From contig JAGGAB010000007.1 of the NCBI GenBank assembly GCA_017889705.1, positions 62,001 to 126,000 of the forward strand: 64,000 nt of DNA, given 5' to 3'. A program made the translations under genes and the position numbers. Below the pieces are notes generated by a model, which worked only from the letters and a program-made list of their open reading frames with translations, was not told the DNA's origin and did no database searches. Position 1 is the stretch's first letter; each line of letters begins with the position of its first letter. Positions 3,947 through 45,770 of the stretch are shown here, one piece after another. Origin of the DNA: Bacillota bacterium (GTDB lineage Bacteria > Bacillota > Negativicutes > Sporomusales > Sporomusaceae).

Positions 3947-5512
3947 TTACTTGGTTAGTCGAGGGTGAATAATTAGCTCAAAATCGTCGCCTTTTTGGTC
4001 TATCTCTTTTCGGTAAGTGGCAAACTCCATAATCGTTTTTAACATTTTATTTTTGGCTGCCGGGTCCTTCGCCTTGTGGTAGGCAGACAGAACTTTTCTA
4101 AGTTTCGGAATTACATCCTTTTGAGCTTTTTCTCTTTTGGCCTCAATTGCGAGAGCGGCTTCTGTGTTAATAATTGCTTTTTCCGTTTCAGCAATCCGCT
4201 CAGACAGTTTTTGCGATCTGTCCAGATAAACTTCCTCAGTGTATATTTTCCGTTCGAGGAAATCATGCAAACTATCTACTTGCTGGTTAAGGGCCTTTAA
4301 TTCCTTGGTTAGATTTTGCAATATCTTCTGGTTAATGCTAACCGTGTTTTCCTTTTTGCTGGCCGGCTTATGACTGTCCCATTGCGACTGGTATTCCTCA
4401 ACCCACGCTTCCAGACCATCTATTACTCGTTGCTCCACATACTCAAAGCGGCTGCTCTTGTTGGGGCAGTGTTTGTTATAACAGATTAGGTGAGGATATT
4501 GTTGGTGAGAATATGGCCTGTATACCATGCTGGCACCGCATATATCGCATTTAATCAGCCCTGCAAGCGGGTTGGTTATGCCGTTAACTAATTGATAGGG
4601 TACGTGGTATTTGCCTTTTAAAATGGCCTGCGCCTTGTCAAATAGCTCCTGAGAGATAAGCGGCTCATGTTTACCCTGGACGCTGATCCATTCTTCACGC
4701 GGCCGCGTTTTGGTGTCGCGTTTTTTATCGGGGTCCTTGGACTTTTTACTTTCTTTCTTTTTCCACTGTACCTTCCCGGTATAAACTTCATTTTTGAGGA
4801 TAAAGAGGACGGTAGAGGATTCCCACGGCTTGCCGGTATAGGTTTTTGCTCCGCGCCGGTTTAATTCGGCAGCAATCTTATGGCCTCCCATATCACCATT
4901 CGCATATAATTCAAAAATTAGCCTCACCACGTCGGCTTGCTCGGGGTGGGGTATAAGCGTCCTGGTTTGTCCTTCTTTTTTAATCTCGTAGCCGTATGGC
5001 GGTCTGGTTCCTATATAATTGCCGTCCTGTACTGATCGTATTCTGCCGCCTTGTAGACGCCGGGTTATTATTTTTAACTCTTTGCGTGCCATAAAGGCTT
5101 CAAATTCGGTGTATTCTTCGTCAAATTCGTCGTTTAGGTTGTAAATCTTTCGCGGCGTGACAATAAGAGTGTTGGAATTTTTGAAGGTCTTTAATATGAG
5201 GCCTTGATCTTCCATATCGCCACGGCCTAGCCGGTCAATCTCCATGCAGAAAACAGACTTGCATTGCCCTGCTTCAACTTCCTTTAACAGTGCAAGCATT
5301 TCCGGCCTGTGAATTAGACTTTCACCTGATACTATTTCCTCGAATACTTTTGTTATATTAACGCCGTAGTCTTTAGCCAGCTTATACAAGGCTTTTTTGT
5401 GCTTGACTAATGTTTCACCCTCGCCGCGAGCCTCGGCCTCTTGATCTTCCCGAGACTTACGCAGGTAAAAATAGGCCGGTTCTAGGTCGTGTCGTGTATA
5501 TTGCTGCTTCAT
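3947..5512 (-). CDS. Large serine recombinase, SpoIVCA-like (integration and excision)
   Basis: A 521-aa site-specific recombinase. The N-terminal resolvase domain (about 12-155) has the catalytic Ser in YLRKSREDQ (residue 20) and the arginine motif EIDRLGRGD. A recombinase domain follows (about 170-290, GTRPPYGYEI). A zinc ribbon comes next (CDICG...CYNKHCPNK), then a coiled coil at about 385-470 and a short tail. This order is that of SpoIVCA and phage integrases such as those of TP901-1 type. It lies 18 bp inside the element, convergent with the sigK fragment. It most likely makes both insertion and the excision that rebuilds sigK. The start ATG (5512) follows CAGGGGTGA. No convincing sigma-E promoter was seen upstream. 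Confidence 0.93.
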   Translation of the reverse strand: MKQQYTRHDLEPAYFYLRKSREDQEAEARGEGETLVKHKKALYKLAKDYGVNITKVFEEIVSGESLIHRPEMLALLKEVEAGQCKSVFCMEIDRLGRGDMEDQGLILKTFKNSNTLIVTPRKIYNLNDEFDEEYTEFEAFMARKELKIITRRLQGGRIRSVQDGNYIGTRPPYGYEIKKEGQTRTLIPHPEQADVVRLIFELYANGDMGGHKIAAELNRRGAKTYTGKPWESSTVLFILKNEVYTGKVQWKKKESKKSKDPDKKRDTKTRPREEWISVQGKHEPLISQELFDKAQAILKGKYHVPYQLVNGITNPLAGLIKCDICGASMVYRPYSHQQYPHLICYNKHCPNKSSRFEYVEQRVIDGLEAWVEEYQSQWDSHKPASKKENTVSINQKILQNLTKELKALNQQVDSLHDFLERKIYTEEVYLDRSQKLSERIAETEKAIINTEAALAIEAKREKAQKDVIPKLRKVLSAYHKAKDPAAKNKMLKTIMEFATYRKEIDQKGDDFELIIHPRLTK

Positions 5513-6963: not shown

Positions 6964-7908
6964 TCAAATGCGTCCTGGTTTTATTCCGATTACTTTGCCG
7001 ACTATTTTTACTCTACTTGTTTCTTCTTTATAAAATTCTCTATCATCATATAAACTGTTATCTGATTTCAATATGAGGCCATCAGGCACTTTTTTTATGC
7101 GCTTTATAATACCCTCATCGCCGTCTACTATAACAATAGCTACTTCGCCGCTATCTACATCATTTTGTGGACGAACAATAGCGTAGTCGCATGGAAGAAA
7201 ACGCGGCGTCATGCTATCACCTTTAACTTTAAGCATATAGCAATTTTTGCAATCTCCGTTAGATACTATCCATTCTTCTTCGCCTAAATACTCCTGCAAA
7301 GCATAACCACCAACCCCAGCGCGAACTTCACCAAATATGGGGAGTTTGATTACATGTTGGTGTTCGGGAATTAAAATAGCATTTGACGGAATAGGTGGAT
7401 CGCTTTTTATTGTGGCTGCCGGTAACTGCAACTTTGAATGTACTGCAATTTCTTCTTCGTTAATAATATCAATGCCATCTATATGCGATTTTATGAGGGT
7501 ATATTGTTCGGGTGACAATTTAGTGCCAGGTGTTTTTTTTAGTATTGTGTTATAAAAATTACGATGTGTTTCTTCTGTAGTGGCAGAGGGAAAGTGACTG
7601 CTAACAGCGTATGGATAAGATGTTTTTACAAGAGCTTCAATTAATCCTTCATATTGCTCAGGGGTTAACATTTCAATTTTTTTATCTAAAGGTAAATAAC
7701 CAGCCTTCAGCATGAGTTTTTCATAGGATACTTTGAGAGCAGGTGCAAGTTTTTTTAATATATTTGGTGTTGGCATTCCGCGTTTACCATTTTCAAGTTG
7801 GGATATATACGAGTTTGATACACCTGATTGTAACTCAAGTTGCCTTGTTGTTAATTCTCTCTCAGTTCTTAATTCTTTAAGATATTTACCAAATTCTTCC
7901 GCTGTCAA
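6964..7908 (-). CDS. CI-like phage repressor (HTH plus S24 peptidase)
   Basis: A 314-aa repressor. Residues about 5-65 are a XRE-type helix-turn-helix (TTRQLELQSGVSNSYISQLENGKRGMP). The C-terminal half is a LexA/CI autoprotease: RAGVGG offers an Ala-Gly cleavage bond, KGDSM holds the catalytic Ser and GIIKRIKK the Lys. DNA damage would thus trigger self-cleavage and induction through RecA. The start is TTG at 7908 with AGAGGTGA upstream. It faces the Cro-like gene across divergent promoters. Everything needed for an SOS-inducible switch is present. Confidence 0.9.
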   Translation of the reverse strand: MTAEEFGKYLKELRTERELTTRQLELQSGVSNSYISQLENGKRGMPTPNILKKLAPALKVSYEKLMLKAGYLPLDKKIEMLTPEQYEGLIEALVKTSYPYAVSSHFPSATTEETHRNFYNTILKKTPGTKLSPEQYTLIKSHIDGIDIINEEEIAVHSKLQLPAATIKSDPPIPSNAILIPEHQHVIKLPIFGEVRAGVGGYALQEYLGEEEWIVSNGDCKNCYMLKVKGDSMTPRFLPCDYAIVRPQNDVDSGEVAIVIVDGDEGIIKRIKKVPDGLILKSDNSLYDDREFYKEETSRVKIVGKVIGIKPGRI

Positions 7909-25613: not shown

Positions 25614-27302
25614 ATGGATGCAAAAAAAGCAATCAAATATTATGACCGCAAATTCGAAAAGGCCAAGGAAGTGCGGCAGTCTTACGAATCCACTTGGGAA
25701 GATATTATGACGTATATCGCCCCGGATTTAAAAGGCTACTTGCACACCAACAATAAAGACCGTGGCGAACGCGAGGACAGTCTTATATATGACAACACGC
25801 CAACAAAGTCGTGGCTTGATTGTTCCAGTGGAATGTTTGCGAGTATCGCGTCACCGTCCCGGCCTTGGATGCAGCGCACTATGGCAGATGATAGTTACAA
25901 CGACATTCCGGGGCTGAGGTCATGGCTTGACACTGTGACAAAAAAAGACTACAGCATATTGCACCGCAGTAACTTTTATAAGTGCAATTACACAGTGTTT
26001 GCTCATTTGTCTGCTATTGGTACGGCGCTTATTATCTGTGAGCCGGACTATGACAAAATAACTCACTGGACGGTTCCCAATATCGGCGAGTATTATCTCT
26101 TAGTTAATGGTAAGGGGATTGTGGACACCGTATTCCGCGAAATTGAATACACGGCCGAGCAGTTGAAGGGGTTATTTGGAGAAAAGGCCTTGCCAAAAGA
26201 TATTGTCAACTCGATAACAGAAGCCAACCCGACAGGCGGCAAGTACACAGTGAGACACGTGATCGAGCCGGACAGTCAAGGTGTTGTACCATTCCGTAAG
26301 CCGTGGGCGTCTGTATACTATTTGCCAGACAAAAAATATGATGATATGCAAATAATTGATGTCAAGGGCTACAAATGGCAACCGTTCGCTGCTCCGCGTT
26401 GGTATGCAAACAATAATGAGACATATGGCAAGATGCAACCAGGGCGCGTGTCACTGGGTAACTGTCAGCAGTTGTCTACAATGATCTTCGATTATATGGA
26501 TGCTGTCGACCAAGAGTTGAATCCTGCTACACAAGGACCGCCTATTACTGGTGCTATTGATAGACGACCAAACAAGCATAACATCATTGAGCCTGGCGCT
26601 GGTGGCTTGCAAGACCCGACTATCCGGCGACTGTTTGAAACTAACCCGCAATTACAGATTATGTGGGCTGCCATCCAGGACAAGCGCGAACAGATTAAAC
26701 AGGACTTTTACCTGGATTTGTTTATGCCTATTACCACTGGTGGCTATGATACCAACATGACGGCAACAGAGGTAACACAGCGGCGTAATGAGCGAATGCT
26801 GGCACTTGGGCCGGTGTTGGAAAACGTTAATACTGAGTACCTTAACCCGATTACTGAGATCGAATACAACTACGCCACTGAAGCGCAAGCCTACCCACCT
26901 ATTGAAAACTATGTGACAGAGGATGCGCTGGAGGCATTGCAGGGCGAAGAAATCAAGACCGAGTATGTCAGTGTACTGGCTCAGGCTCAGAAGATGGTTG
27001 ACCTTGACCGGATTGACACTACCTTGACCTATGCAGAGAGGTTGGCAGCACTTGATCCAACAGTGGTAATGAAGGTTAATACTATGGAGACCATTGACGA
27101 AGTTGCTAAAATGTCTGGTGCGCCTGGTAGAATGCTGCGGTCTGATGATGAAGTTAAGGAGATGCAAGAGCAACAGCGACAAGACGCGGAACAGCAGCAA
27201 ATGGTTGAGCAGGCGCAGGCAATGGCTAATGTGGCCGGGCAAGCAAGCAAGATGCAAATGGATCAGGATAATGCGCTTACTCGATTCTTGGGGGTGGAAT
27301 AG
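25614..27302 (+). CDS. Portal protein (head-to-tail connector, podovirus type)
   Basis: A 562-aa protein. The N-terminal part (KYYDRKFEKAKEVRQSYESTWEDIMTYIAP, SLIYDNTPTKSWLDCSSGMFASIASPSRPWMQ) is the hallmark of the podoviral head-to-tail connecting protein family. NMTATEVTQRRNERMLALGPVLENVNTEYLNPI is the conserved middle. The end is Gln-rich coiled coil (MQEQQRQDAEQQQMVEQAQAM), the expected barrel region. Twelve copies would form the ring through which DNA enters and leaves. Confidence 0.92.
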   Translation: MDAKKAIKYYDRKFEKAKEVRQSYESTWEDIMTYIAPDLKGYLHTNNKDRGEREDSLIYDNTPTKSWLDCSSGMFASIASPSRPWMQRTMADDSYNDIPGLRSWLDTVTKKDYSILHRSNFYKCNYTVFAHLSAIGTALIICEPDYDKITHWTVPNIGEYYLLVNGKGIVDTVFREIEYTAEQLKGLFGEKALPKDIVNSITEANPTGGKYTVRHVIEPDSQGVVPFRKPWASVYYLPDKKYDDMQIIDVKGYKWQPFAAPRWYANNNETYGKMQPGRVSLGNCQQLSTMIFDYMDAVDQELNPATQGPPITGAIDRRPNKHNIIEPGAGGLQDPTIRRLFETNPQLQIMWAAIQDKREQIKQDFYLDLFMPITTGGYDTNMTATEVTQRRNERMLALGPVLENVNTEYLNPITEIEYNYATEAQAYPPIENYVTEDALEALQGEEIKTEYVSVLAQAQKMVDLDRIDTTLTYAERLAALDPTVVMKVNTMETIDEVAKMSGAPGRMLRSDDEVKEMQEQQRQDAEQQQMVEQAQAMANVAGQASKMQMDQDNALTRFLGVE

Positions 27303-28922: not shown

Positions 28923-29921
28923 ATGGCAACTTTAAATGAAACTATGTGGAGTTGGAAAGACTACGCTTCACAACAAGACCCTGACGGAATGGCGGCTCGC
29001 GTAATCGATATTATGAGCGAGGAAAACGCCATCGTCGAAGATATGTATGTTATGCCCGGTAATAAGGATTATGGTCTTTTGACCTCGCAAAACGCTACCG
29101 AACCAACCGTATCAATCCGTGGTGTTAACGGTACTGTTACTGGAACTAAGGGCGCATTCAAACAACTGGAAGCCCATTGTGCACTATTTACCGCGCTTGG
29201 GCAGATCGACAAAGAACTTTATAACGCTGCTACCGACAAAAACGGCTTTCGTGCAAATGCGAATAAGCCGTTTTTTAACGCCATGCCGAAGCGCATTGCT
29301 AATGAACTGTTCTATGGCAGCAAAGCTAACGATGCACAGTCGTTTGATGGCTTGTCCCAGTTCTACAAAAGCACAACTACCGATGAGTTTGGCGAATATG
29401 TCGCTTTGGCCGGGGGAACGGGAACAGACAACCGCTCTATTTGGCTGATTGATTGGGGCGAAGATTCTTGTTGCGGCACTTATCCGAAAAACACCGTGGC
29501 TGGTTTGCAGCATACTCCATACCCAGAAACTCTTGTGGATATGCCGGATGGTTCAAAATGGCCGGCACTGCAGGACTTGTGGGAATGGCGTGTAGGTGTT
29601 GCTGTCCGCGATTACCGCAAGGTATACCGGATTGCTAACATCAGTAAGGCTGCCCTGAAGTCAATTAATACAACTAACGACACAGCACCAAACTTGTTTG
29701 ATCTTATGATTGATGCCTTGACTTGGGTTAATCCTTCGCCGCGTGCAAGGTTTTACGGTGACCGTAATATTATGTCCGCATTCACTAAGCAGGCTTTCAA
29801 TAAGTCTAACAACCTTGTGTCGATGGAAGAAATCTACGGCAAGAAGCGTGTGCCGTCCTTTATGGGTGTACCTATTCGCCGTTGTGATGCACTCGACACT
29901 GATGAAAGTCTCGTATCCTAA
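28923..29921 (+). CDS. Major capsid protein
   Basis: A 332-aa protein starting MATLNETMWSWKDYASQQDPDGMAARVIDIMSEENAIVEDMYVMPGN. TEPTVSIRGVNG, KRIANELFYGSKANDAQSFDGLSQFY and NISKAALKSI fit the HK97-fold capsid group seen in BPP-1-like phages. It needs no cleaved leader by sequence. Size, position after the scaffold and a very strong-looking ribosome site (AGAAAGGATGATG) agree. Confidence 0.88.
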   Translation: MATLNETMWSWKDYASQQDPDGMAARVIDIMSEENAIVEDMYVMPGNKDYGLLTSQNATEPTVSIRGVNGTVTGTKGAFKQLEAHCALFTALGQIDKELYNAATDKNGFRANANKPFFNAMPKRIANELFYGSKANDAQSFDGLSQFYKSTTTDEFGEYVALAGGTGTDNRSIWLIDWGEDSCCGTYPKNTVAGLQHTPYPETLVDMPDGSKWPALQDLWEWRVGVAVRDYRKVYRIANISKAALKSINTTNDTAPNLFDLMIDALTWVNPSPRARFYGDRNIMSAFTKQAFNKSNNLVSMEEIYGKKRVPSFMGVPIRRCDALDTDESLVS

Positions 29922-30526: not shown

Positions 30527-30540
30527 TTGAGGTGATTTCT

Positions 30541-31161
30541 TTGACTAAGTACGACATTTGTAATATTGCTTTATCAAATTTAGGCATTACCCGGTCTATA
30601 TCCAACTTCACAGATAACACCATTGAAGCCATGCTATGTGGCCGTTATTATGACTTAGCCAAAGAAATTGCCTTAACAGCTTACGAATGGAAGTTTGCCA
30701 ACATATACAACTCTGCGGCCTTGACACTAACCGAAGATGCACACGCAGAATATCAGTATGTTTATGAATATCCAGATGATTGTCTAAAGATTACCGCTGT
30801 TGGCACTGCAAGAGATTTAGGTGTATTTGAATATCCATTCGAAGTATTTGCTATTTATGATGAAAATTATGACACTGTTAAGCGCATTGGCTGCGATATA
30901 GCCGATGCAACGGCGAGCTATTTAGTCGATGTGGACGAAAATGCTATGCCGGCGGCTTTTGTTAAAGCCCTGTCGTGGGGAATTGCAGCAGAAGTTGCAT
31001 ACGGTCTTACGACTTCGCCCCAAATGGCGCAGTACGCTTCACAAATGTACGGCGTGGCGTTAAACCAGGCAATACACCGGAACTTTACCGAAGGGAAACA
31101 GACAAAGGAAATGCCTAGATACATCAGGGCGCGCGGAGGATGGTATCATGGCAAAGATTAA
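30541..31161 (+). CDS. Tail tube adaptor (T7 gp11-like)
   Basis: TTG 30541 behind TGAGGTGA (206 aa; track GTG 30532 is too close to the ribosome site). MTKYDICNIALSNLGITRSISNFTDNTIEAMLCGRYYDLAKEIALTAYEWKFA is a helical start typical of podoviral head-tail adaptor/gatekeeper proteins; PRYIRARGGWYHGKD ends it. It should form the ring below the portal. Overlaps the nozzle gene by 14 nt. Confidence 0.75.
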   Translation: MTKYDICNIALSNLGITRSISNFTDNTIEAMLCGRYYDLAKEIALTAYEWKFANIYNSAALTLTEDAHAEYQYVYEYPDDCLKITAVGTARDLGVFEYPFEVFAIYDENYDTVKRIGCDIADATASYLVDVDENAMPAAFVKALSWGIAAEVAYGLTTSPQMAQYASQMYGVALNQAIHRNFTEGKQTKEMPRYIRARGGWYHGKD

Positions 31162-33433
31162 GATGCAACCTTCGTTTGCTGCCGGTGAGCTCGCGCCTGC
31201 GCTAAGGCGGCGGACAGACCTACAAAAGTATGCAATTGGTGCCGATACAATTAAAAACATGGTTGTCTTACCACAAGGCGGCTTGCAGGCTCGAATAGGT
31301 ACAAAGTATGTAGCCTCTGTAAAAGCGCCGTTAAACAGCACCAGGCTTGTGTCATTTGCTTACAACACTGCACAGGCATACATACTTGAGTTTGGCGATT
31401 ACTATGTGCGGTTTTTCATGGACGGTGCGCAAATAGTTGTAAGCGACACGGACTCTACTCCTTATGAGGTTGCAACTCCTTACCCTGTGGCCGATATATG
31501 GAAGTTGAAATTTGAGCAGTCTGCAGATACGTTGTATATTATTCATCCAGACTATATTCCGAGGCTGCTTACCCGGACGGATCACAATGCCTGGACGCTA
31601 ACAGTTGGTGACTTTGAGTTTGGGCCACTTAATAACGAGAACAGCACTACTAAAAGAATCACGTTAAGCAATTCAGATGGTGATACATGGCTGTATGAAG
31701 GTGAAACCGTAACTGCCACAGCTTCTACAGGGCTGTTTAAGGAGGAGCATATCGGGTCAATATGGGGCATTCGTTATAGAGCGTTTAACGGTACTGAAAC
31801 TTATACCATATCTAGCGGTGTTGCATTTACAAGTGATGTCTTTAGGGTATTGGGAGACTGGACGGTAACAATTAGAGCCTATGGCGCTGACATGAATAAC
31901 TCTAACACCACTATCTATAAGTCGGTTGATGATGGATCTACTTGGTTCAAAATCAAGACTATAGTGGCAAATATCCAGGACGGCAGCACTTATTCTGTGA
32001 CCGGCTCAGAAGATGACGAATGTTTAATCAAGATTTCCAAGCCGGCTGCTGAAGATAGCGGCTCTATTACAATTGACTTATCAGGACAATATTCCTGGTG
32101 TTACTTTAAAATAACCGGTTATACCTCAACTACGGTTGCCACTGCTGTTATGCAAAATAACTTCAACAAAGGCGGTACTCCATTCAAAACATGGGCCGAA
32201 GGTGCTTGGTCAAGTTATAGAGGGTGGCAAAACTCAGTAACCTTCTTTCAAAACCGGTTGATGTTTGGCGGTAACGACAACTACCCTAATACCTATTGGG
32301 CGAGTTGCGTAGATGATTATTATAATAACGTGGTGAGCATTGACCAGGTAGAGGATGAATCAATACAAGACAGGCTGCCATCCAGGCAGGTAAACGCCAT
32401 TGAGTGGATGATACCTATGCAGGATTTAATTGTTTTAACACAGGATTCCGAATGGACTATAAGCCCGTCAACAACGACGGGTATTTTTTCGTACAAATCT
32501 AAGATAGTGAAACAGAGAGGTTCTAGTGGTTGCAATGGTAGTGTTAAACCGGTGGTTATTACCGACACGGTTATATTCTTACGGCGTAACGCCAATAAGG
32601 TCCAGGGATTAACCTACACGGATGCAAATGGCTATTCGTCATCTGAGCTATCAATCATGGCAGACCACTTATTTAGTGGGTATACCATTAAAAAATGGGC
32701 TTATCAACAGAATCCTAACTCTATTCTGTGGTGCGTGCGCTCAGATGGGGCGCTATTGTCATTTACCTATATGCCCGAGCAAGATGTATGGGCTTGGTCG
32801 CATCACGACACAGACGGCTTGTTTGAGGATGTTGAGGTTATTCCCGGAGATGCGCAGGACGAAGTATATTTCATTGTTAATCGGACAATTAACGGTTCTA
32901 CTTGCCGGTATATTGAAATGCTGGCAGAGCGGGACGTGACCAGCCGGGAAACATACTGGGGCGTGGACTGCGGAGCAAGCCAAAGCTATGATATGGCCAC
33001 AACTACGGTAAGCGACCTTGACTTCTTGGAAGGTAAATCAATCAGGGTTTTCGCTGACGGTGTTAATGTTGGCAAAAAAACCGTTTCTAGTGGCGTGATT
33101 ACTCTCGACAAAGCGGCAAGTTATGTGATGGTCGGACTTGATTATGATTGGCTTGTTAAGACGCTTAGTATTGATTCTGGTATAGACCGTAAGAAGTCGA
33201 TTAATAGCGTCACTGTATCGGTTGTAGATTCGTATGGCGGCGAAATTATGAGTAACGAAATAGACCTGCCGATTAAACTGCCTTATCCGGGCACCGAATA
33301 TTATACCGGTGACCTTATTGACGTAATCGCAAGTGCCACATGGGACTATCCCGGTCAGGTTATCATTCAGGGCACCGGTTACGATCCTATGCATATCGTA
33401 GCTATTACTCCGAAGGTGAGCTATGGAAGTTAA
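31148..33433 (+). CDS. Tail nozzle-type protein (T7 gp12-like position)
   Basis: A 761-aa, beta-rich protein: MQPSFAAGELAPALRRRTDLQKYAIGADTIKNMVVLPQGGLQARIGTKYVA is a start shared by many podoviral tail tube B proteins. Later parts include WQNSVTFFQNRLMFGGNDNYPNTYWAS and LVVLTQDSEW-like propeller strands (MQDLIVLTQDSEWTISPS). Place after the adaptor supports the nozzle role. The family is common but the exact function is inferred from position. Confidence 0.72.
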   Translation: MAKIKMQPSFAAGELAPALRRRTDLQKYAIGADTIKNMVVLPQGGLQARIGTKYVASVKAPLNSTRLVSFAYNTAQAYILEFGDYYVRFFMDGAQIVVSDTDSTPYEVATPYPVADIWKLKFEQSADTLYIIHPDYIPRLLTRTDHNAWTLTVGDFEFGPLNNENSTTKRITLSNSDGDTWLYEGETVTATASTGLFKEEHIGSIWGIRYRAFNGTETYTISSGVAFTSDVFRVLGDWTVTIRAYGADMNNSNTTIYKSVDDGSTWFKIKTIVANIQDGSTYSVTGSEDDECLIKISKPAAEDSGSITIDLSGQYSWCYFKITGYTSTTVATAVMQNNFNKGGTPFKTWAEGAWSSYRGWQNSVTFFQNRLMFGGNDNYPNTYWASCVDDYYNNVVSIDQVEDESIQDRLPSRQVNAIEWMIPMQDLIVLTQDSEWTISPSTTTGIFSYKSKIVKQRGSSGCNGSVKPVVITDTVIFLRRNANKVQGLTYTDANGYSSSELSIMADHLFSGYTIKKWAYQQNPNSILWCVRSDGALLSFTYMPEQDVWAWSHHDTDGLFEDVEVIPGDAQDEVYFIVNRTINGSTCRYIEMLAERDVTSRETYWGVDCGASQSYDMATTTVSDLDFLEGKSIRVFADGVNVGKKTVSSGVITLDKAASYVMVGLDYDWLVKTLSIDSGIDRKKSINSVTVSVVDSYGGEIMSNEIDLPIKLPYPGTEYYTGDLIDVIASATWDYPGQVIIQGTGYDPMHIVAITPKVSYGS

Positions 33434-33857
33434 AACAGCGACACTTGCTGACGTGGATAACTTCGTCATGCGCCAGGATGATAAGGCAGAGATTTCAGAA
33501 CTGTACGGCTTAGAGCCATACGATGCATTAAGGCGGTCTATTATTGAATCTGAGGACTGTTGGACAGCCGCAAGTGAGGAAAAAGTCCTGTGTATTGCTG
33601 GCTGTAGTCGAAGCAGTGACGGTGGTTGTTTATGGGTATTATTCGCCGACATACAACTGTTGCCGCTGTCTTTTTTTAAAGAAAGCCGGAAACATGCTCA
33701 ATACATGCTGAAAAAGTACGGCAATTTATCAAACTACACGGCGGCAAGTAACGTGTTTGTTATTAAATGGGCGAAGTCATTAGGCTTTACGGTTGATGAA
33801 CCAATTTCCTACGGCCCAAACGGACGTTTATTTTGCAGATTCCACAAGGAGGGGTAA
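33423..33857 (+). CDS. Gp13-like (DUF2833, GNAT-fold-like) internal virion protein
   Basis: A 144-aa protein: MEVKTATLADVDNFVMRQDDKAEISELYGLEPYDALRRSIIESEDCWTAASEEKVLCIAGCS, WVLFADIQLLPLSFFKESRKHAQYMLKKYG, VIKWAKSLGFTVDEPISYGPNGRLFCRFH. This matches the phage gp13/DUF2833 family, shaped like a GNAT acetyltransferase but used in virion assembly. Overlaps the nozzle gene by 11 nt. Confidence 0.75.
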   Translation: MEVKTATLADVDNFVMRQDDKAEISELYGLEPYDALRRSIIESEDCWTAASEEKVLCIAGCSRSSDGGCLWVLFADIQLLPLSFFKESRKHAQYMLKKYGNLSNYTAASNVFVIKWAKSLGFTVDEPISYGPNGRLFCRFHKEG

Positions 33858-33858
33858 T

Positions 33859-34395
33859 ATGTGCTTGCCAGTAATCAGCGCAGTTGCTGAATTAGGATCG
33901 GCAATATCGCAATCACAGGCCAGTAAACAACAGGCTGCCATTGCAAGCCAAAACGCAAAACTAGCAGAAGAACAAGCCAACGAAGTACAGATACAAAAGC
34001 AAGCGGAATTAAACCAGATCAACGACGAAAAGCGGCAGACTATGGGAACGCAACGAGCGGCTGCGGCGGCCAACGGTGGCGACACTAGCATGGGAACAGG
34101 GCTTGGCATTTTAACCGGCACCGCCTACAAGGCCCAGGAAGATAAAAACGACACGGAATATAACTTTGAACTTCAGTCCAATGCTTACCGGCAACAGGCC
34201 AATGATTACCGCAATGCGGCAAGTATATATAAATCCAATGCCAAGAATCAGTTGTATGGTGGCATATTGGGGGCTACGGGAACATATTTCTCAAAACTTA
34301 ACCCATATAAAAAGGCTAACGGTGCCGCGTCAGCTTCTAAATCATTAAAAATACCCAAGTACGGCTCTGTAGCAAAATCAGTATATGAGTGGTGA
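33859..34395 (+). CDS. Internal virion (ejection) protein, T7 gp14-like
   Basis: Start ATG 33859 behind AAGGAGGGG (178 aa; the track adds 22 false residues). MCLPVISAVAELGSAISQSQASKQQAAIASQNAKLAEEQANEVQIQKQAELNQINDEKRQTMGTQRAAAAANGGDTSMGTGLGIL: one hydrophobic start, a long helix and a Gly/Ala-rich piece, as in gp14-type proteins that enter the outer membrane when DNA is ejected. Position between gp13-like and the core proteins agrees. Confidence 0.75.
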   Translation: MCLPVISAVAELGSAISQSQASKQQAAIASQNAKLAEEQANEVQIQKQAELNQINDEKRQTMGTQRAAAAANGGDTSMGTGLGILTGTAYKAQEDKNDTEYNFELQSNAYRQQANDYRNAASIYKSNAKNQLYGGILGATGTYFSKLNPYKKANGAASASKSLKIPKYGSVAKSVYEW

Positions 34396-34400
34396 TGTAA

Positions 34401-35906
34401 ATGGCAACAATACCAAGCTATGAAAGAAAGGTAGGCATTAACGCGCCGCCAACCGTTAGGGTAGACCCTACATCTGTTTCAGCTAATACTTACGGTCAGC
34501 AAGTTTTTCAGGGGATGGAAAAGGCCGCTGCAGGGATGCAAGAGTATCAGGATAAGCAGGATACTGCCAATGTAGTTGCTGCAAAAAACGATATACAGAA
34601 CCGCATGACAGATTTGTTGTATAACAAGGATAGCGGGTTGATGTTTAAAGAGGGCGCACAGGCTAATGGCTTAGGAAACACTTTTAATACTGAATTTGAT
34701 AAAAGCGCCAATGACATTCGGAAGGGGTTAAAAAACTCGAGACAACAACAGGCGTTTGACCAATATATTGCCAATTATCGCAATGGCCTAAATGTGCACA
34801 TAAATACGCATGAAGTTAAACAGAGTGATGTTGCCCTTGCGGATTCGTTTAAAAATCTTACCTATACGACATCTAACTCTCTTAGCCAGCCCGGTGTTTA
34901 TCGTAACCCAGAATTGGTAAATACGATGCTGAACGATTGGGAAAAAGGCGCAAGGGCAACAAACTATAGGAAAGATGACGAAACAATTAGTCGAATAATT
35001 GCTACTGGTCGCGGTGAATTATTAAAAAGCTCTCTTGACGTACTGTATAAACAAGACGATGTTAACGGCGCGAGAGACTTTATTAAATTATACGGCAACC
35101 AAATGGATGCCAATACTATTGCACCTTATCAGGGGTGGGTTGAAAAGAAAGACAGAAAAATACAATCTGCCAATATCGCTGATTCATTGTTTTCTAAATA
35201 TGGTGTTGAAAATGAACGGGCAGCAATGCAAGAATTGAAGGCCGCTTACGGTAATAGCCCAATGTTTGACACAATATCAACTAGCTTACAAGCAAAGTAC
35301 GTTGATGAAAGAAGATATAAAGCTGATGCTGATAAGCAAAAACAAGAAAGTATTATAGCAAGTATTTGGAAAGCCGGTTCATTGCAAGAGGCGCAGGATA
35401 TTATTGACAACGCCGATATTAAGCCTAGTCAAAAACTTTACTTATTGAATCAGGCAAAAGGCGCAATGAAAGCATTGGCTGTCCCGGCTGATAGCGAATA
35501 TAAACAGCAGGCCAAACATTGGGCTACTTACCGGCTGAATGGCGGGCTAGAAAGGCATATGCTACAACTCCGGGAATATTATACGAAGATTGGCACCGGT
35601 GAAGTAATTACGCCAGAACAGCAAACTAAATACGATTATGCCGCCTCGCAAGTAAATAACTACAAGATTTTTATGAGCAATGGCGGTTTTGATCCTGCCG
35701 CCGAAGATGCAAAGGCTGCACAAGCGCAAGAAACTGAACAGGGCATTTGGCAAGCGATCAATGATTTAGCTAGTAAAGGGCTGAAGAAGCAACAAATCAT
35801 CGACAAGATTAACGTAATTGCTCCTAAGTATGGTTATAAAGCTTCGTATTTTATTGATAATGCTGAATGGGATAAGCAAGGGAATCAAAAGGGTGGTGTT
35901 CAATAG
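34401..35906 (+). CDS. Internal core (ejection) protein, T7 gp15-like position
   Basis: A 501-aa helical protein. MATIPSYERKVGINAPPTVRVDPTSVSANTYGQQVFQGMEKAAAGMQEYQDKQD opens it, followed by a chain of helices (QQQAFDQYIANYRNGLNVHINTHEVKQ, DDVNGARDFIKLYGNQMDANTIAPYQ). Such proteins lie between gp14-like and the giant core protein in short-tailed phages and form part of the DNA ejection channel. The role follows from position and build; no motif proves it. Confidence 0.65.
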   Translation: MATIPSYERKVGINAPPTVRVDPTSVSANTYGQQVFQGMEKAAAGMQEYQDKQDTANVVAAKNDIQNRMTDLLYNKDSGLMFKEGAQANGLGNTFNTEFDKSANDIRKGLKNSRQQQAFDQYIANYRNGLNVHINTHEVKQSDVALADSFKNLTYTTSNSLSQPGVYRNPELVNTMLNDWEKGARATNYRKDDETISRIIATGRGELLKSSLDVLYKQDDVNGARDFIKLYGNQMDANTIAPYQGWVEKKDRKIQSANIADSLFSKYGVENERAAMQELKAAYGNSPMFDTISTSLQAKYVDERRYKADADKQKQESIIASIWKAGSLQEAQDIIDNADIKPSQKLYLLNQAKGAMKALAVPADSEYKQQAKHWATYRLNGGLERHMLQLREYYTKIGTGEVITPEQQTKYDYAASQVNNYKIFMSNGGFDPAAEDAKAAQAQETEQGIWQAINDLASKGLKKQQIIDKINVIAPKYGYKASYFIDNAEWDKQGNQKGGVQ

Positions 35907-38900
35907 TGGGCGCATATGAAGATATGATGTCGGGAACAGCCGAAATTCCTAACCAGCCAGTAGATAAGGGGTGGTTAGGCAATGCATTTGATGATGTTGA
36001 AACTGTTCTGTCGAACTACGCCATTGGCGCATATCAAGGAGGCCGCGAGGTAGTCACGGAGGGCAATAGGTTAGCGGAGAGTAACCCCCTTGCCTTAACT
36101 GGCACGCCTATGCAGGATGGAATAACAAATGCGCCAGCACCGCAACAGACTGAAGAACAGCAACAAGCCGGGGCATTATACAAAGAAGCTACCGGGAACT
36201 TTGGCGAAGAAACTATCAAGGCACCTTTAGGTGTTGCGGGTTTAGTTAATCCAGTAGCCGGCGCTGCTTATCTGCCATTTCTGGCGCATGATGTAGGCAA
36301 ATCATATGAAAAAGGCGGCGTGGGCCAAGCGGCACGAGACTTAACTTATGGGCAGGCAGTGGACTTTGCTAGTCAACCTAATTTAGCCCAACAATTTAAG
36401 CAAAAACCTGTATCTACTGCCGCGAATGCTGCAATGTCTGTCTTGCCTATGGCACTATTAGGACGCGGCCTATACGACAGCGTTGCGCGAATACCGAAAG
36501 TAAACGAAAAAGGGATACCTATTAACGAAGATATTCAAAGGCAAATTGCTGATGATTTTAATAGCGTTCAAGAGCCGATACTTGCGCCTACTACTGCTGG
36601 CGCAGACATTATAACAATCGGTGAAAAACAACTTGGCAAACCGTATGAATTAGGCGCAAATGGGTTTGATGCTACCGATTGCGGCAAATTCACTCAGGAC
36701 GTATTCGCAGAGAAAGGCATCACTCTTGAAAAGCGCACGGCAGACGGGCAATACGGTCAGTTGGAGCAAGAGGGGAAAACCTTTGAAGATGCCGCGCAAC
36801 TGCAAGAAGGGGATTTGGTGTTTTGGGATGTTCCAAGTAACAGAGAGCGGTGGAAACCTTCAGACGATCCTAATGCTGTTAATATGGATGGCGAGGCATA
36901 CAAAGGAATCACTCACGTTGGCATATACGCCGGTGAAGGCAAGGTATTACAGGCGGGTAGCCGCGGTGTAAGCTATATGGATTTAGACACTTATCCGGTA
37001 GTTGGCTATGGCAGGGCTGTTGACAGTAATACAACAGGGCGCGTTTATGCTTCTAGAGATAAGGCCGAGCGGTATAATGAGCGCAATATCGATGATGATA
37101 TTAGGATTAACGAAGACTTATTTAAAAGTAAAGACTTTTGGGAAATGACCAAAGAAGAGTACGAAAAAGTACAAGGAGATAGAAATTCGTTATTTGATGA
37201 AACCCAAGTCGCCGAAAATATACAACGCGGGACTGAAGCTATTGATCGTGTTATTAATAACCAAATTGATGTAAATGACGCTATGCACCGTCCAGATTTG
37301 GGCAGTATATCTTTTTACTGGGGTAATAAGAAAGAGGGCATTAAACACATCATTGATAGACGTACTGCGCAGGGATATGACGGCAATGCGATTGCCAGAA
37401 AAATGGTTGATGTTATTGCCAATGGCGAAGCTGGCGAAGTATATGGACCAGAAGGCGGTCACAGAGTCAACTTATCTTATGACGGACACACCGCTGTTTT
37501 ATCATTATTTAAACACGGCGATAAACAAACATGGCTGCTAACTGGTTGGGAAAATTACAAAGAGGCTCCCGGTGCAACCAATGGGGGTAACGGCCCATTT
37601 GGTGCTACGCGTTTCGAGCCTATGCGTACTCGTCTCGAAACGGTTGCGGAAACCTCTTCTAAGATCAATATAAATCAAAAAAATAGCAAAGTCAATGGAA
37701 AGCAATCACACAAGCAAATTATTGAGCAAGCGCTTAAAACTGGCAGGAAAGTATCTAAAGATGTATTAAAAGATTATCCTGATTTGGTTGAAAAATACCC
37801 AGGAATTGAATATTCCCTTACTAAAGGTGCAGTCTCTGAATCTATGCGCAGTGACATGCTTAACAGGGCACATGAAGCCGCCATGAATAACGACTTTGAA
37901 ACGGCCTATACCCTTGCGAAACAATCCGGCGATCCTGCTTGGGAAAATGCATATAAACTACTGAAAGACACCGACGGCGGCGAAGTACCACCAGCGCCTA
38001 GGTTAGGCGGCGACGTAAAAGGCAAATATGACGGCAAAAACATTACCATGAAAGAGTTGCTAAACCGGGTCAATGATATATTTGCTCCTATTCGCACCGG
38101 TCGTATTGGTCATAAAGGTGTTGAAGGCTTTGTTAACCACGGAACCGGAATAATCCGTACTAAGGACTACGGTGATTTAAACGTCGCGGCGCACGAAGTC
38201 GGTCATTTAGTCGATGCAGCACTGGGGTTGAGAAAAGAACCTGCTTTTGATGCCGAATTTAAGAAAATTGTACATGAGCGATTTGGTGAAGGAGCATACG
38301 CGCCCGAGCAAGTCAGGGCAGAAGGGATTGCCGAGTTCACCAAAGACTATATAAATAATCCTGAAAAAGCAAAACAAAATTTCCCTAACTACTTCGCGGC
38401 ATTTGAAGAAGCTTTGTCTAAAAATGCAGACGTTCGTGCAAGAGTTAATGAGTTTAAAGACATGGTGCAGGCTTGGAACAACCAATCGCCGGAGGCCAGG
38501 GGGCGTGGCGCAGTATCATTTGCCGGAGATAACAAGTTTGAAACATTGAAGGATAATGCTAAATCTATGGCATACAAGGCCTATGAAGCGTTTTTCGATG
38601 ACAAAGTGGAGTTAGCCCGGTTCACATCTGAGATCGAAAAGCAACTAGGCCGCAAACTTGAATTTGAGCAAAACCCATACAAGAAAGCGCGAATGGTGCA
38701 AAATTCTTCACTGGCAAGGGCTGAAATGCTTGTGTCAGATAGCAATCCTGAGTTGGTACAAGCAACCTTGAATAAGTTGTACAACGGCAAATTGGAACAT
38801 GCCGTCACTATTAGGGAAATAGTTGAGGGGCTTAACCGCAAAACACTGAATGAAAAATATCCTGAGTACCTTAAAAACGGCAACTTTAAGACATGGCAAC

Positions 38901-40954
38901 AGGCTTTTAGTACATTACTCACAGCTAAGCGGCAAATTGAAATACAAAAGCTTGAACCAGGATATAAAGGCCCAATGTCAAAACTGGATGCTGAAGCCAT
39001 AGCAAAAAATTCCCCAAAAGAACTGCAGGAATTGACAGAGAAATTTTATCAATACAACGACAATTTGCTGGCCATTGCCGAAGATAGCGGAATTATTAGC
39101 AAAGAAACTCTTACTGTCCTGCGTGACAAGTATAAAAACTATGCTCCGATGATGCGCGACTTCGCCGACGAAGGTGCTATGACTGATGCCTTTAGTACTG
39201 GTAAAAAGATTGGTAATGTTGGCAATCCGCTCAAAAAATTAACCGAGGAAGGTTCAACAAGAACGGTTATTGATCCGCTTGAAAACACAATTAAAAACAC
39301 CTATACCGTATTGAGTGCTGCCGAACGCAATAAGGTTGCGCAAACTTTTATTCAACTGAATAAGGAAAGCGGTCTAGGTAAGTTTATTGAAAAAGTGGCC
39401 GGCACTACAAGTGATGCCAATAAAAGCATATTTACTGTCATGGTAGACGGCGAAAAACAAGCATTTCAAACTACACCGGAATTTTACCGGGCCATAATGT
39501 CGATGAATCAACAATCAAGCAATATGCTTATTAGTATGCTCAAGCCGTTTGCGCAAGCGTTAAGGGTTGGAGCAACCATATCACCTGATTTTGTAGTGAG
39601 AAACCTTATCCGCGACACTCTGACAGCCGGCTTATATTCGGAAACGGGGTTTAAACCGGTATTAGACACTATAAAAGGAGCTAAATCATTAGCGACTAAC
39701 AAGGAATTGGCTTATGAGTTCAAGGCGTCCGGCGCTCCGTTATCGGCTTTTGTTGGCCTTGATCGGTCAAGTGTTGGCAGTATGCTCGATAAAATGGGTG
39801 GCGGCAGTGAGTGGCGCAAATATAACCCGTTAACCTACATTGAAGCCGCATATCAAGGTGCTAGGAAAGTATCAGAAGCGGCAGAATCAGGCACTAGGGT
39901 GCGGGAATTTGAACGAGCCAGACAACAGGGAGTAAGTATTGAAGAAGCGGGGTTATTAGCCAAGGATGTTACTCTTGACTTTAGCCGATCCGGTACTATT
40001 GGTAGACAGATTAACCAAATAGTGCCGTTTTTTAATGCCGTTTTGCAGGGTGGAGATAGGTTTTTCCGGTCATTCAAGGATAACCCAGCAAGAACAACGG
40101 CTTTTGCGCTTACCTATATTACCCTTCCTAGCGTAGTAACTTGGCTTATGAACCATGACCAAGAGTGGTATAAAGAGCTGCCGGATGACGTGAAAAATTC
40201 AAGTTGGTTACTTGAACACAACGGAACTATCATTCGTATACCCAAACCGTTTGAGCCTGGCATTGTTTGGGGTTCATCAATTGAACGGGCATTAGACCAA
40301 ATGTTTAACGAGGATAAAGATGCCGTTACGCAATGGGCTAAGTACGCTCTTGACGGCTTTGCCCCAAGTATTATGCCGACTTTAGCAGGGCCGCTAATTG
40401 AATGGATAACAAATTACAATTTCTTTACCGGCAAGCCTGTCGTTGGCAGAAAAGAGCAAGGCTTACCTGACGAACTTCAATATAATGCATATACTTCCGA
40501 GATGGCAAAGTCGTTAGGTAGCGCAACCGGTACTTCCCCAATGAAGATAGACAATACCATTAATGGGTATACTGCCAGCGCCGGTAAGTTCTTAGTGGGA
40601 CTTACGGACAATTTAATAGGCAACCCCAAAGAATTGCCTGCTAAGACAATGTCGGAGTTGCCCGGTATTCGTGGATTAACTTATACGCCGCTTAAAAATC
40701 CGCAATCGGTCGAAGAATTCTATAATAAACTTGAAGAAGTCGAAAAGACTTACAACGCATCTGGTAAGAAAGGCAATCCTCCTGCAGAAGTCAAGAAAAT
40801 GCGGCAGAATGCAGAAAGAATCAAGGACCTTAACAAAGAAAATCGCAACATTACTAATGACGATAAACTGACCCCCGAGCAGAAGCGGCAAAAGATTGAC
40901 ACCAATGCAGCAAAAGTATTGCAGATTGCCAGAAAAGCAATAGGGAAAAATTAG
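35906..40954 (+). CDS. Giant polyvalent ejection protein: NlpC/P60, nuclease-like and HExxH domains
   Basis: A 1682-aa protein, the largest in the element. Residues about 230-375 are an NlpC/P60 peptidase: DATDCGKF (Cys 259), THVGIYAG (His 337). About 469-552 (YWGNKKEGIKHIIDRRTAQG...VLSLFKHGDKQTWLLTGWENYK) resembles PBECR/EndoU-type nuclease domains of phage polyvalent proteins. HEVGHLVDA (residues 763-767) is a zinc-protease HExxH, with Glu-rich downstream AEGIAEF. The C-terminal half is a large helical polyvalent-protein-associated domain (FVVRNLIRDTLTAGLY, DFSRSGTIGRQINQIVPFFNAVLQGGDRFFRSF). It takes the place of T7 gp16 and should be injected with the DNA, opening peptidoglycan and perhaps acting inside the new host. 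Confidence 0.82.
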   Translation: MGAYEDMMSGTAEIPNQPVDKGWLGNAFDDVETVLSNYAIGAYQGGREVVTEGNRLAESNPLALTGTPMQDGITNAPAPQQTEEQQQAGALYKEATGNFGEETIKAPLGVAGLVNPVAGAAYLPFLAHDVGKSYEKGGVGQAARDLTYGQAVDFASQPNLAQQFKQKPVSTAANAAMSVLPMALLGRGLYDSVARIPKVNEKGIPINEDIQRQIADDFNSVQEPILAPTTAGADIITIGEKQLGKPYELGANGFDATDCGKFTQDVFAEKGITLEKRTADGQYGQLEQEGKTFEDAAQLQEGDLVFWDVPSNRERWKPSDDPNAVNMDGEAYKGITHVGIYAGEGKVLQAGSRGVSYMDLDTYPVVGYGRAVDSNTTGRVYASRDKAERYNERNIDDDIRINEDLFKSKDFWEMTKEEYEKVQGDRNSLFDETQVAENIQRGTEAIDRVINNQIDVNDAMHRPDLGSISFYWGNKKEGIKHIIDRRTAQGYDGNAIARKMVDVIANGEAGEVYGPEGGHRVNLSYDGHTAVLSLFKHGDKQTWLLTGWENYKEAPGATNGGNGPFGATRFEPMRTRLETVAETSSKININQKNSKVNGKQSHKQIIEQALKTGRKVSKDVLKDYPDLVEKYPGIEYSLTKGAVSESMRSDMLNRAHEAAMNNDFETAYTLAKQSGDPAWENAYKLLKDTDGGEVPPAPRLGGDVKGKYDGKNITMKELLNRVNDIFAPIRTGRIGHKGVEGFVNHGTGIIRTKDYGDLNVAAHEVGHLVDAALGLRKEPAFDAEFKKIVHERFGEGAYAPEQVRAEGIAEFTKDYINNPEKAKQNFPNYFAAFEEALSKNADVRARVNEFKDMVQAWNNQSPEARGRGAVSFAGDNKFETLKDNAKSMAYKAYEAFFDDKVELARFTSEIEKQLGRKLEFEQNPYKKARMVQNSSLARAEMLVSDSNPELVQATLNKLYNGKLEHAVTIREIVEGLNRKTLNEKYPEYLKNGNFKTWQQAFSTLLTAKRQIEIQKLEPGYKGPMSKLDAEAIAKNSPKELQELTEKFYQYNDNLLAIAEDSGIISKETLTVLRDKYKNYAPMMRDFADEGAMTDAFSTGKKIGNVGNPLKKLTEEGSTRTVIDPLENTIKNTYTVLSAAERNKVAQTFIQLNKESGLGKFIEKVAGTTSDANKSIFTVMVDGEKQAFQTTPEFYRAIMSMNQQSSNMLISMLKPFAQALRVGATISPDFVVRNLIRDTLTAGLYSETGFKPVLDTIKGAKSLATNKELAYEFKASGAPLSAFVGLDRSSVGSMLDKMGGGSEWRKYNPLTYIEAAYQGARKVSEAAESGTRVREFERARQQGVSIEEAGLLAKDVTLDFSRSGTIGRQINQIVPFFNAVLQGGDRFFRSFKDNPARTTAFALTYITLPSVVTWLMNHDQEWYKELPDDVKNSSWLLEHNGTIIRIPKPFEPGIVWGSSIERALDQMFNEDKDAVTQWAKYALDGFAPSIMPTLAGPLIEWITNYNFFTGKPVVGRKEQGLPDELQYNAYTSEMAKSLGSATGTSPMKIDNTINGYTASAGKFLVGLTDNLIGNPKELPAKTMSELPGIRGLTYTPLKNPQSVEEFYNKLEEVEKTYNASGKKGNPPAEVKKMRQNAERIKDLNKENRNITNDDKLTPEQKRQKIDTNAAKVLQIARKAIGKN

Positions 40955-41190
40955 TCAATCATTATACCATGTGACCCCTTGGGGCGTAATCCTAAACACA
41001 TCAAAACTATCATTATTACAACAAAGAAAGCTATCATCATAAATGTTTCAGTTGAACTTTGCGCCCCACTGCGGTTACAACGTAGTTGCCTGGCTAAATC
41101 GGAAAACCCGTTAATAAATGCGCCAATTATGCCAAAGGCCATTATTATTCCAAGGGGTATGCTGATTATGTAATAAATTTTCTCAAACAT
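40951..41190 (-). CDS. Leftward two-helix membrane protein (79 aa)
   Basis: Minus-strand ATG 41190 behind GGAGGGATA (track start 41205 precedes it). MFEKIYYIISIPLGIIMAFGIIGAFINGF and FMMIAFFVVIMIVLMCLGLRP are two membrane helices around a polar loop. It is the only leftward gene in the late region and abuts the giant gene tail to tail, with a 4-nt overlap. Could be a holin-like or lysogenic superinfection-exclusion protein; undecided. Confidence 0.62.
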   Translation of the reverse strand: MFEKIYYIISIPLGIIMAFGIIGAFINGFSDLARQLRCNRSGAQSSTETFMMIAFFVVIMIVLMCLGLRPKGSHGIMID

Positions 41191-41224
41191 AGTATCCCTC
41201 CACAATTAATTATATCACCAACAA

Positions 41225-41250
41225 AGACGCCTAGCGCGTCTATTTTTACG
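41225..41250 (+). terminator. Terminator before the tail-fibre genes
   Basis: AGACGC-CTAGC-GCGTCT then ATTTTTA, 15 bp ahead of the next ribosome site. Confidence 0.6.
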
Positions 41251-43751: not shown

Positions 43752-44015
43752 GTGGGGGAATTTTTAGCTAATATAGTGGCGTGTATAACAATCATTGCAT
43801 TTGCTGCCGGAGTTATCGCCGGCATAACAAAATATGTAGTTGTTAATCCATTGCAGACGGCGATCAGTACGCTAAACAAGACGGTAGAGGAACTAAAAAA
43901 CATGCTTGACCGTATGGAACAAGATCAGCGCGATATTGACAAGCGGTTAGTAGCCGTCGAGGAATCAAGTAAATCTGCTCACAAACGAATTGACGGATTG
44001 GAGGTTAGGGCATGA
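43752..44015 (+). CDS. Membrane protein with coiled coil, holin-associated (XhlA-like)
   Basis: GTG 43752 (87 aa) after GGAGGTGTAGG. Residues 5-30 form a membrane helix (NIVACITIIAFAAGVIAGITKYVVV), then a heptad coil to the end (ISTLNKTVEELKNMLDRMEQDQRDIDKRLVAVEESSKSAHKRIDGLE). Membrane-plus-coil proteins in this place belong to lysis modules of Firmicute phages. It may be a holin or a partner of one. Confidence 0.62.
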   Translation: MGEFLANIVACITIIAFAAGVIAGITKYVVVNPLQTAISTLNKTVEELKNMLDRMEQDQRDIDKRLVAVEESSKSAHKRIDGLEVRA

Positions 44016-44482
44016 CGAAGGTGGTAGCTGAACATGTTGAGCATATGACATTCTCCGAGGAAAAAGTCATTGCTGCACATGATGACCGTAGCGAAAATGT
44101 TTCTTTGTTTCATAAGTCAAAAAAACAACTGGAAGAGGATGGACATATAACTTGCTTTATTTGCGGAACATCAGAAGATATTGAAACACATCATTACGGC
44201 TGTGAAAAGGCAGATGAAAATAACTGTGATTTTGAAGAGTTAAAGGCATATTTACTATGCAATGATGTTTACGGATACAGCCATAAAATGATTGATATTC
44301 CATTGACTTCTGTTGATGATATTCGCAATCAAATGCAGCTTTGTACAGTTCACCATAGGGGCAAATGTACCGGCGCTCATTGCACGACTCACGGCACTTG
44401 GATAATGCAAAAAATCGGCAAGGCTAATCCGGTAAAGCAACCGGGCGAAACCATAGAACAAGTACAAGAAAGGGTGGTGTAA
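44012..44482 (+). CDS. HNH-like protein in the lysis region (156 aa)
   Basis: CFICGTSEDIETHHYGCEKADENNCDF, then MQLCTVHHRGKCTGAHCTTHGTWIMQK: a CxxC knuckle, an HH pair and a closing C..HH, the HNH/zinc nuclease pattern. Such genes between holin and endolysin are found in Negativicute prophages, purpose unknown. Overlaps both neighbours by 1-4 nt. The ending KQPGETIEQVQERVV echoes the small early protein at 13459 (KPGESLIEYHKRVT). Confidence 0.6.
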   Translation: MTKVVAEHVEHMTFSEEKVIAAHDDRSENVSLFHKSKKQLEEDGHITCFICGTSEDIETHHYGCEKADENNCDFEELKAYLLCNDVYGYSHKMIDIPLTSVDDIRNQMQLCTVHHRGKCTGAHCTTHGTWIMQKIGKANPVKQPGETIEQVQERVV

Positions 44483-45043: not shown

Positions 45044-45061
45044 AAATTGGAGGAATGAAAC

Positions 45062-45768: not shown

Positions 45769-45770
45769 CA

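What the first reader, a model, noticed from the sequence alone, without database searches (positions are those of the whole stretch)
35906..40954. 1682-aa injected protein with three enzyme-like domains
It combines an NlpC/P60 peptidase with Cys/His, a PBECR/EndoU-like nuclease region and an HExxH protease motif ahead of a large helical domain. The peptidase fits wall opening on entry. The other two suggest action on host RNA or protein just after injection, which in a temperate phage is notable.
Basis: partly seen in the sequence, partly recalled or inferred. Interest (0 to 1): 0.65.

Follow-up and report, generated by a model that had tools for sequence, protein, structure and literature searches.

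The report
Modular virion ejection protein of prophage
This very large prophage protein is most likely carried inside the virus particle and pushed into the bacterium at infection; it is a new member of a known class that bolts a wall-cutting enzyme and an RNA-cutting domain onto a delivery body, and the next gene looks like a small membrane protein in the place where other phages keep a gene that blocks rival infections.

Summary
A 1682-aa ORF (35906-40954, +) carries NlpC/P60 (Cys259, His337), PBECR1 (His481, Thr546), a zincin (HEVGHxxD 763-770, EGxAEF 806-811) and an LPD38-containing helical body. AlphaFold2 gives confident folds for PBECR1, zincin and body. The gene is last in a portal-capsid-gp11-gp12-gp13-gp14-gp15-gp16 order and lies in a temperate phage (serine integrase, CI). 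It is a phage-type polyvalent protein (Iyer et al. 2017) in the T7 gp16 position, with no detectable homology to T7 gp16. Relatives keep zincin plus body and swap the rest: the wall enzyme is NlpC, M15, SLT, glucosaminidase or lysozyme; the middle slot is PBECR1, PBECR3, ART, a helicase or empty. The zincin travels with the body even where no RNase or ART is detected, so processing or delivery is likelier than host attack. PBECR1 is the plausible cytoplasmic effector. Presence in virions is inferred; LPD38 homologue JC1 gp69 was found in virions by mass spectrometry. Seen in passing: a convergent small two-helix membrane-protein gene overlaps this gene's stop, exactly where P22 keeps sieA. Such genes follow 14 of 27 family loci but only 4 of 236 other late-gene ends. 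Classed as a new member of a known kind.

The parts
35906..40954 (+). 1682-aa gp16-position polyvalent ejection protein
   Evidence: 100% identical copy in an IMG/VR contig (L004)
35906..36550 (+). aa 1-215, N-terminal region shared with closest phages (51-68% identity to L005, L006, L007); one hydrophobic stretch at aa 108-126
36584..37036 (+). aa 227-377, NlpC/P60 peptidase; Cys259, His337, Gln349 as third polar residue
   Evidence: Pfam PF00877, PDB sequence matches, alignment with 6 homologues
37202..37705 (+). aa 433-600, PBECR1 RNase-like domain; His481 in helix, Arg520, Thr546 in last strand
   Evidence: Pfam PF18809; residues invariant in a 7-sequence alignment; model pLDDT 90+
37565..38005 (+). 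aa 554-700, linker, largely low confidence or disordered; not aligned in relatives without PBECR1
   Evidence: absent in L005 and L007
38045..38512 (+). aa 714-869, zincin-type metallopeptidase; H763 E764 H767 D770, Glu806/Glu810 as candidate third ligand
38513..40951 (+). aa 870-1682, helical body ('chassis') containing LPD38 (aa 1419-1587)
   Evidence: 99 BFVD structure matches at E<=0.001; no significant PDB match
34401..35906 (+). gp15-position protein, 501 aa, matches the N-terminal part of phrog_1044; no lysozyme domain detected
33793..34395 (+). gp14-like internal virion protein
   Evidence: Pfam T7_gp14 E 2e-8, phrog_418
33423..33857 (+). gp13-like internal virion protein
   Evidence: phrog_308 E 2e-29
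31148..33433 (+). gp12-like tail tube protein
   Evidence: phrog_376 E 1e-183
30532..31161 (+). gp11-like tail tube protein
   Evidence: phrog_394
28923..29921 (+). major capsid protein
   Evidence: phrog_212
25614..27302 (+). portal / head-tail connector of T7/BPP-1 type
   Evidence: phrog_332 E 2e-105
3947..5512 (-). serine integrase
   Evidence: phrog_95 E 2e-107 and DNA invertase phrog_125
6964..7908 (-). CI-type repressor
   Evidence: phrog_4 E 9e-41
40951..41190 (-). convergent small membrane protein (79 aa, two hydrophobic helices), SD GGAGGG at 41196-41201, extended -10 TGATATAAT at 41209-41217 (minus strand)

Best explanation
The protein is the large internal virion (ejection) protein of a temperate podovirus. 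It is made late and packaged near the portal with the gp14- and gp15-like proteins, and leaves the head before the DNA. Steps, with their basis: (1) the gene sits at the end of the ejection-protein cluster and has an intact LPD38 body (shown); (2) it is in the virion (inferred from position and from JC1 gp69); (3) NlpC/P60 cuts peptide cross-links in the thin wall of an outer-membrane-bearing host (domain shown, action inferred); (4) the helical body spans or anchors at the membrane and guides DNA, doing the job of T7 gp16-C (inferred); (5) the zincin, always joined to the body in close relatives, cuts the polypeptide itself or its partners during packaging or delivery, freeing upstream parts (inferred, after Iyer et al.); (6) PBECR1 reaches the cytoplasm and cleaves host RNA such as tRNA, mRNA or defence RNA (fold and active-site residues shown, delivery and target inferred). 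The body plus zincin is a fixed platform on which wall enzymes and effectors are exchanged between phages (shown by comparison).
For: Gene order portal-MCP-gp11-gp12-gp13-gp14-gp15-this gene, the same order as annotated Klebsiella phage ST512-KPC3phi13.3, BPP-1 and T7. Lysogeny genes. Closest relatives keep the same neighbours. Exchange of the wall enzyme: NlpC (L005, L053), M15 (L007), M15+SLT (L006, L058), SLT (L035, L037, L038, L056), glucosaminidase (L036), phage lysozyme (L039). Exchange of the middle slot: PBECR1 (window, L055, L040, L140), PBECR3 (L036), ART-like (L006, below cut-off), strawberry-notch helicase (L040), none found (L005, L007). On the body tree the window's nearest bodies (L035, L053) lack PBECR1, while PBECR1 carriers L055, L040 and L140 lie on other branches. 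Conserved catalytic residues. Models. LPD38 protein JC1 gp69 found in purified virions with 51 unique peptides (PMC9144972); the DC1 DarB-like homologue matches our body. Host genome encodes Omp85, so it has an outer membrane.
Against: No direct evidence of packaging or ejection. No homology of the body to T7 gp16, BPP-1 bbp10 or the Klebsiella counterpart by profile comparison, and no PDB structure matches it. Only one weakly hydrophobic stretch, so the membrane topology is unclear; PBECR1, lying between a periplasmic enzyme and the body, might stay in the periplasm. Foldseek E-values for PBECR1 and zincin are above 0.07. Some close relatives have neither PBECR nor ART, so the effector is not essential to the machine.
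Confidence: 0.82

Rival explanations
1. The zincin and PBECR1 are both host-directed effectors delivered to the cytoplasm: one cuts host protein, the other host RNA.
For: Both motifs are intact; Iyer et al. leave host-directed proteolysis open (PMC5512222).
Against: The zincin is present in the close relatives whatever their other domains, directly upstream of the body, and its motif is lost in the giants L040, L042 and L043 while the rest of the region is kept. This is the behaviour of a chassis part rather than an exchangeable effector.
Confidence: 0.2
2. PBECR1 here is a degraded or non-catalytic RNA-binding remnant, as proposed for phage Mu MuF.
For: It only just passes the Pfam cut-off (29.4 vs 27.6 bits) and lacks about 8 residues between the WG and GxxH motifs that most homologues have.
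Against: His481, Arg520 and Thr546 are all kept; a similarly short loop occurs in L136 and L140; model confidence is high.
Confidence: 0.15
3. The protein acts in the lysogen or late in lysis (for example as a host-killing or superinfection protein) rather than being packaged.
For: Polyvalent proteins have been suggested to act also against competing elements (PMC5512222).
Against: The gene is embedded in the late structural operon with one-base overlap with the gp15-position gene; an LPD38 homologue is in virions.
Confidence: 0.06

Closest known systems
Phage-type polyvalent proteins (Iyer et al. 2017, PMC5512222)
   Same: Several unrelated enzyme domains in one late-gene product; zincin MPTase with D three residues after HEXXH; PBECR1; LPD38; placed beside virion genes in a prophage.
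   Different: The wall enzyme here is NlpC/P60; the paper's text lists lysozyme, a SpoIID-like transglycosylase and DD-peptidase, and does not contain the word NlpC (supplement not read).
Burkholderia phage JC1 gp69 / Bcep22-type DarB-like proteins
   Same: LPD38 body at the C-terminus, peptidoglycan-cutting domain at the N-terminus, last large structural gene, followed by minus-strand small genes; JC1 gp69 is in the virion.
   Different: About 4500 aa with helicase/methylase-like parts; no NlpC or PBECR1 reported; body only about 23% identical (DC1 homologue).
T7 gp16 (internal virion protein D)
   Same: Last gene of the gp13-gp14-gp15-gp16 cluster; N-terminal wall enzyme; large helical remainder.
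   Different: No detectable sequence or structural similarity of the body; T7 gp16 has a transglycosylase and no RNase or zincin.
Phage P22 SieA (for the adjacent small gene only)
   Same: Minus-strand membrane protein directly convergent with the last ejection-protein gene.
   Different: 79 aa and two helices against 162-164 aa and three; no sequence similarity.

Membership tests
Phage-type polyvalent protein | two or more unrelated domains in one polypeptide, from the described repertoire | tested here: met
Phage-type polyvalent protein | encoded beside virion structural genes | tested here: met
Phage-type polyvalent protein | delivered into the recipient cell | not testable with these tools
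   needs virion proteomics and a translocation assay
NlpC/P60 peptidase | family score above cut-off and catalytic Cys-His | tested here: met
   49 bits vs 23; Cys259, His337 conserved
[quoted passage not shown]
   His481 in a helix and Thr546 in the last strand of the model
PBECR1 (BECR-fold RNase) | RNA cleavage | not testable with these tools
   bench assay needed; not shown for the family in the text read
Zincin metallopeptidase (MPTase of polyvalent proteins) | HEXXH helix, D at +3, Glu on the following helix, three-stranded core | tested here: met
   HEVGHxxD and EGxAEF invariant in the 10-sequence alignment; three short strands and two helices in the model
T7 gp16 family | homology to T7 gp16 | tested here: not met
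   hhalign E 0.41; no hit in PDB fold search
T7 gp16 family | position as last gene of the ejection cluster | tested here: met
SieA (adjacent ORF) | convergent membrane-protein gene directly after the gp16-position gene | tested here: met
SieA (adjacent ORF) | sequence homology to SieA | tested here: not met
   BLASTP E 2.5
SieA (adjacent ORF) | blocks DNA injection of related phages | not testable with these tools
   plating assay needed

The most novel reading that the evidence does not exclude
The large ejection protein and the small convergent membrane protein at its stop codon form a delivery/exclusion pair. In the lysogen the small protein, transcribed from its own promoter, sits in the inner membrane and blocks the incoming body of related phages, as SieA does for P22, but it belongs to several unrelated protein families that have each come to occupy the same slot.
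Probability: 0.35. Interest if true: 0.6.

Novelty: new member of a known kind. Interest (0 to 1): 0.42.

Why it matters
It gives a clear case in which the last ejection protein of a podovirus acts as an exchange platform: a fixed body and zincin, with interchangeable wall cutters and interchangeable effectors. That makes two ideas testable: whether the built-in zincin serves delivery rather than attack, and whether phage-injected RNases matter at the start of infection. The neighbouring small membrane genes offer candidates for a sequence-diverse counterpart of SieA.

Tried and rejected
Homology to T7 gp16, BPP-1 bbp10 and the Klebsiella gp16-position protein: none by profile comparison, and no PDB fold match. 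Chance HExxH: rejected, because the motif sits in a conserved, confidently folded domain. A PBECR1 immunity gene: no neighbouring family was found linked to PBECR1 presence; the convergent small gene occurs in phages with and without PBECR1, so it is not its immunity protein. Close annotated phages: the named-phage collection holds only distant ones, under 60% identity. Small gene as holin: unlikely, since holin-like and amidase-like ORFs lie on the + strand at 43752-46103 (own reading of the translations). The small-gene signal does not extend to the giant-protein loci of other families in the host's class nor to marine loci.

Full report
Observation. The ORF 35906-40954 (+) is real, 1682 aa. 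Pfam finds NlpC/P60, PBECR1 and LPD38; PHROG 9854 covers aa 727-1679. The HEVGH motif at 763 has no Pfam hit but belongs to a conserved domain (below). An identical copy is on a 41.8-kb IMG/VR contig. The window is part of contig C36 of a 5.0-Mb assembly whose host encodes Omp85 and therefore has an outer membrane.

Surroundings. Upstream, in order and on the same strand, lie a portal of T7/BPP-1 type, major capsid protein, gp11-, gp12-, gp13- and gp14-like proteins and a 501-aa gp15-position protein. The same order is seen in T7, BPP-1 and a Klebsiella podovirus. A serine integrase, CI-type repressor and antirepressor show that the phage is temperate.

Domains. NlpC: Cys259 and His337 are conserved in six homologues, with Gln349 at the third position. 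PBECR1: His481, Arg520 and Thr546 are invariant in a seven-sequence alignment; in the AlphaFold2 model (residue = model number + 394) His481 lies in a helix and Thr546 in the last strand, consistent with the arrangement described for BECR RNases (PMC5512222). Zincin: HE[VIL]GHxxD and EGxAEF are invariant in the window protein and its nine closest full-length relatives, matching the phage-type MPTase with an Asp three residues after HEXXH (PMC5512222). Foldseek against PDB puts a CDI toxin, HigB and YoeB on one part and zincins (lethal factor, CapP, ArdC, PprI) on the other, with weak E-values (the assignment of hits to parts is my reading from alignment lengths and family knowledge). The body, aa 860-1682, is modelled well (pLDDT 84, pTM 0.82), has 99 matches among predicted viral proteins, many named large polyvalent protein, and no significant one in the PDB.

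Modularity. Fourteen relatives of the first searches and 80 viral loci were compared. The body is always C-terminal. The zincin is directly upstream of it in the close family, and is absent from the roughly 1200-aa marine forms. Upstream parts are exchanged: NlpC, M15, SLT, glucosaminidase or lysozyme for the wall; PBECR1, PBECR3, ART-like, strawberry-notch helicase, ParB, methylase or phosphoribosyltransferase for the rest. PBECR1 most like ours (54-58%) sits on several different bodies. In the body tree the nearest relatives of our protein, L035 and L053, have SLT or NlpC and no PBECR1. The second phage-like contig of the same assembly, C150, has a 1693-aa protein in the same position with a related N-terminal and NlpC region, PBECR3, and a different body.

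Mechanism. Packaging and ejection are inferred from position and from JC1 gp69, an LPD38 protein found in virions (PMC9144972). Wall cutting by NlpC at entry follows the T7 model, in which the wall enzyme of the ejection proteins can move between gp15 and gp16 (PMC8954989). Because the zincin is present with an intact motif in proteins that otherwise carry only a wall enzyme (L005, L007, L035, L053), and is degenerate in three giants, I favour a role in processing or delivery. PBECR1 is the likely effector; whether it reaches the cytoplasm is untested, and the topology is uncertain.

Adjacent small gene. On the minus strand, 41190-40951, a 79-aa ORF with two hydrophobic helices overlaps the stop of the large gene. 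It has a GGAGGG ribosome site and an extended -10 TGATATAAT but no clear -35. Two relatives have homologues whose DNA differs mainly at third codon positions (17, 6 and 32 differences at positions 1, 2 and 3), so it is very likely a protein-coding gene. ORFs of this kind (45-130 aa, at least two hydrophobic helices, ending within about 50 bp of the stop) follow 14 of 27 close-family loci against 0.04 expected from shuffles and 4 of 236 other late-gene ends in the same loci. They follow 0 of 42 marine loci, and no further loci of the host's class apart from one duplicate. The test was framed after seeing the first cases, the loci are not phylogenetically independent, and the helix count is a simple hydropathy scan. 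P22 has sieA in precisely this place and orientation; [quoted passage not shown] There is no sequence similarity to SieA, so this is an analogy of position and topology only.

Verdict. A real, well-formed and interesting but recognisable protein: a new member of the phage-type polyvalent proteins, in the gp16 position of a temperate podovirus.

Noticed in passing
window 40951-41190 (-); also L034, L035, L037, L038, L040, L042, L053, L055, L007, L058, L059: Small two- or three-helix membrane-protein gene convergent with the stop of the LPD38 gene, in the place where P22 keeps sieA; several unrelated sequence families occupy the same slot. Candidate superinfection exclusion proteins.
   Followed up: partly
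window 23678-24319 and 24319-25149 (+): Large terminase is split into an ATPase ORF (213 aa) and a nuclease ORF (276 aa), with one-base overlap; a similar split (about 209-218 + 266-271 aa) is seen in L190, L191, L192 and C150, so it is a lineage trait and not damage.
   Followed up: partly
G000 contig C150 (L033): A second, related phage-like contig in the same assembly, with the same late-gene order and a 1693-aa gp16-position protein (NlpC + PBECR3, a different body, no HExxH).
   Followed up: partly
L040 (403-12150), L174 (G282, 9186-residue frame), L171 (6564-residue frame): Giant LPD38 proteins in the host's class; L040 has SLT, strawberry-notch helicase, PBECR1 and a zincin domain that has lost its HExxH.
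   Followed up: no
L047 5121-6602 (-): A 493-aa ORF joins a PBECR1 domain to what reads like a TetR-type regulator; possibly a prophage remnant fused to a host gene.
   Followed up: no
window 41225-41241: Hairpin AGACGCCTAGCGCGTCT followed by T-rich sequence on the + strand, between the small gene and the next late gene; terminator-like on both strands.
   Followed up: no
window 21596-21687: tRNA-Tyr gene inside the prophage.
   Followed up: no
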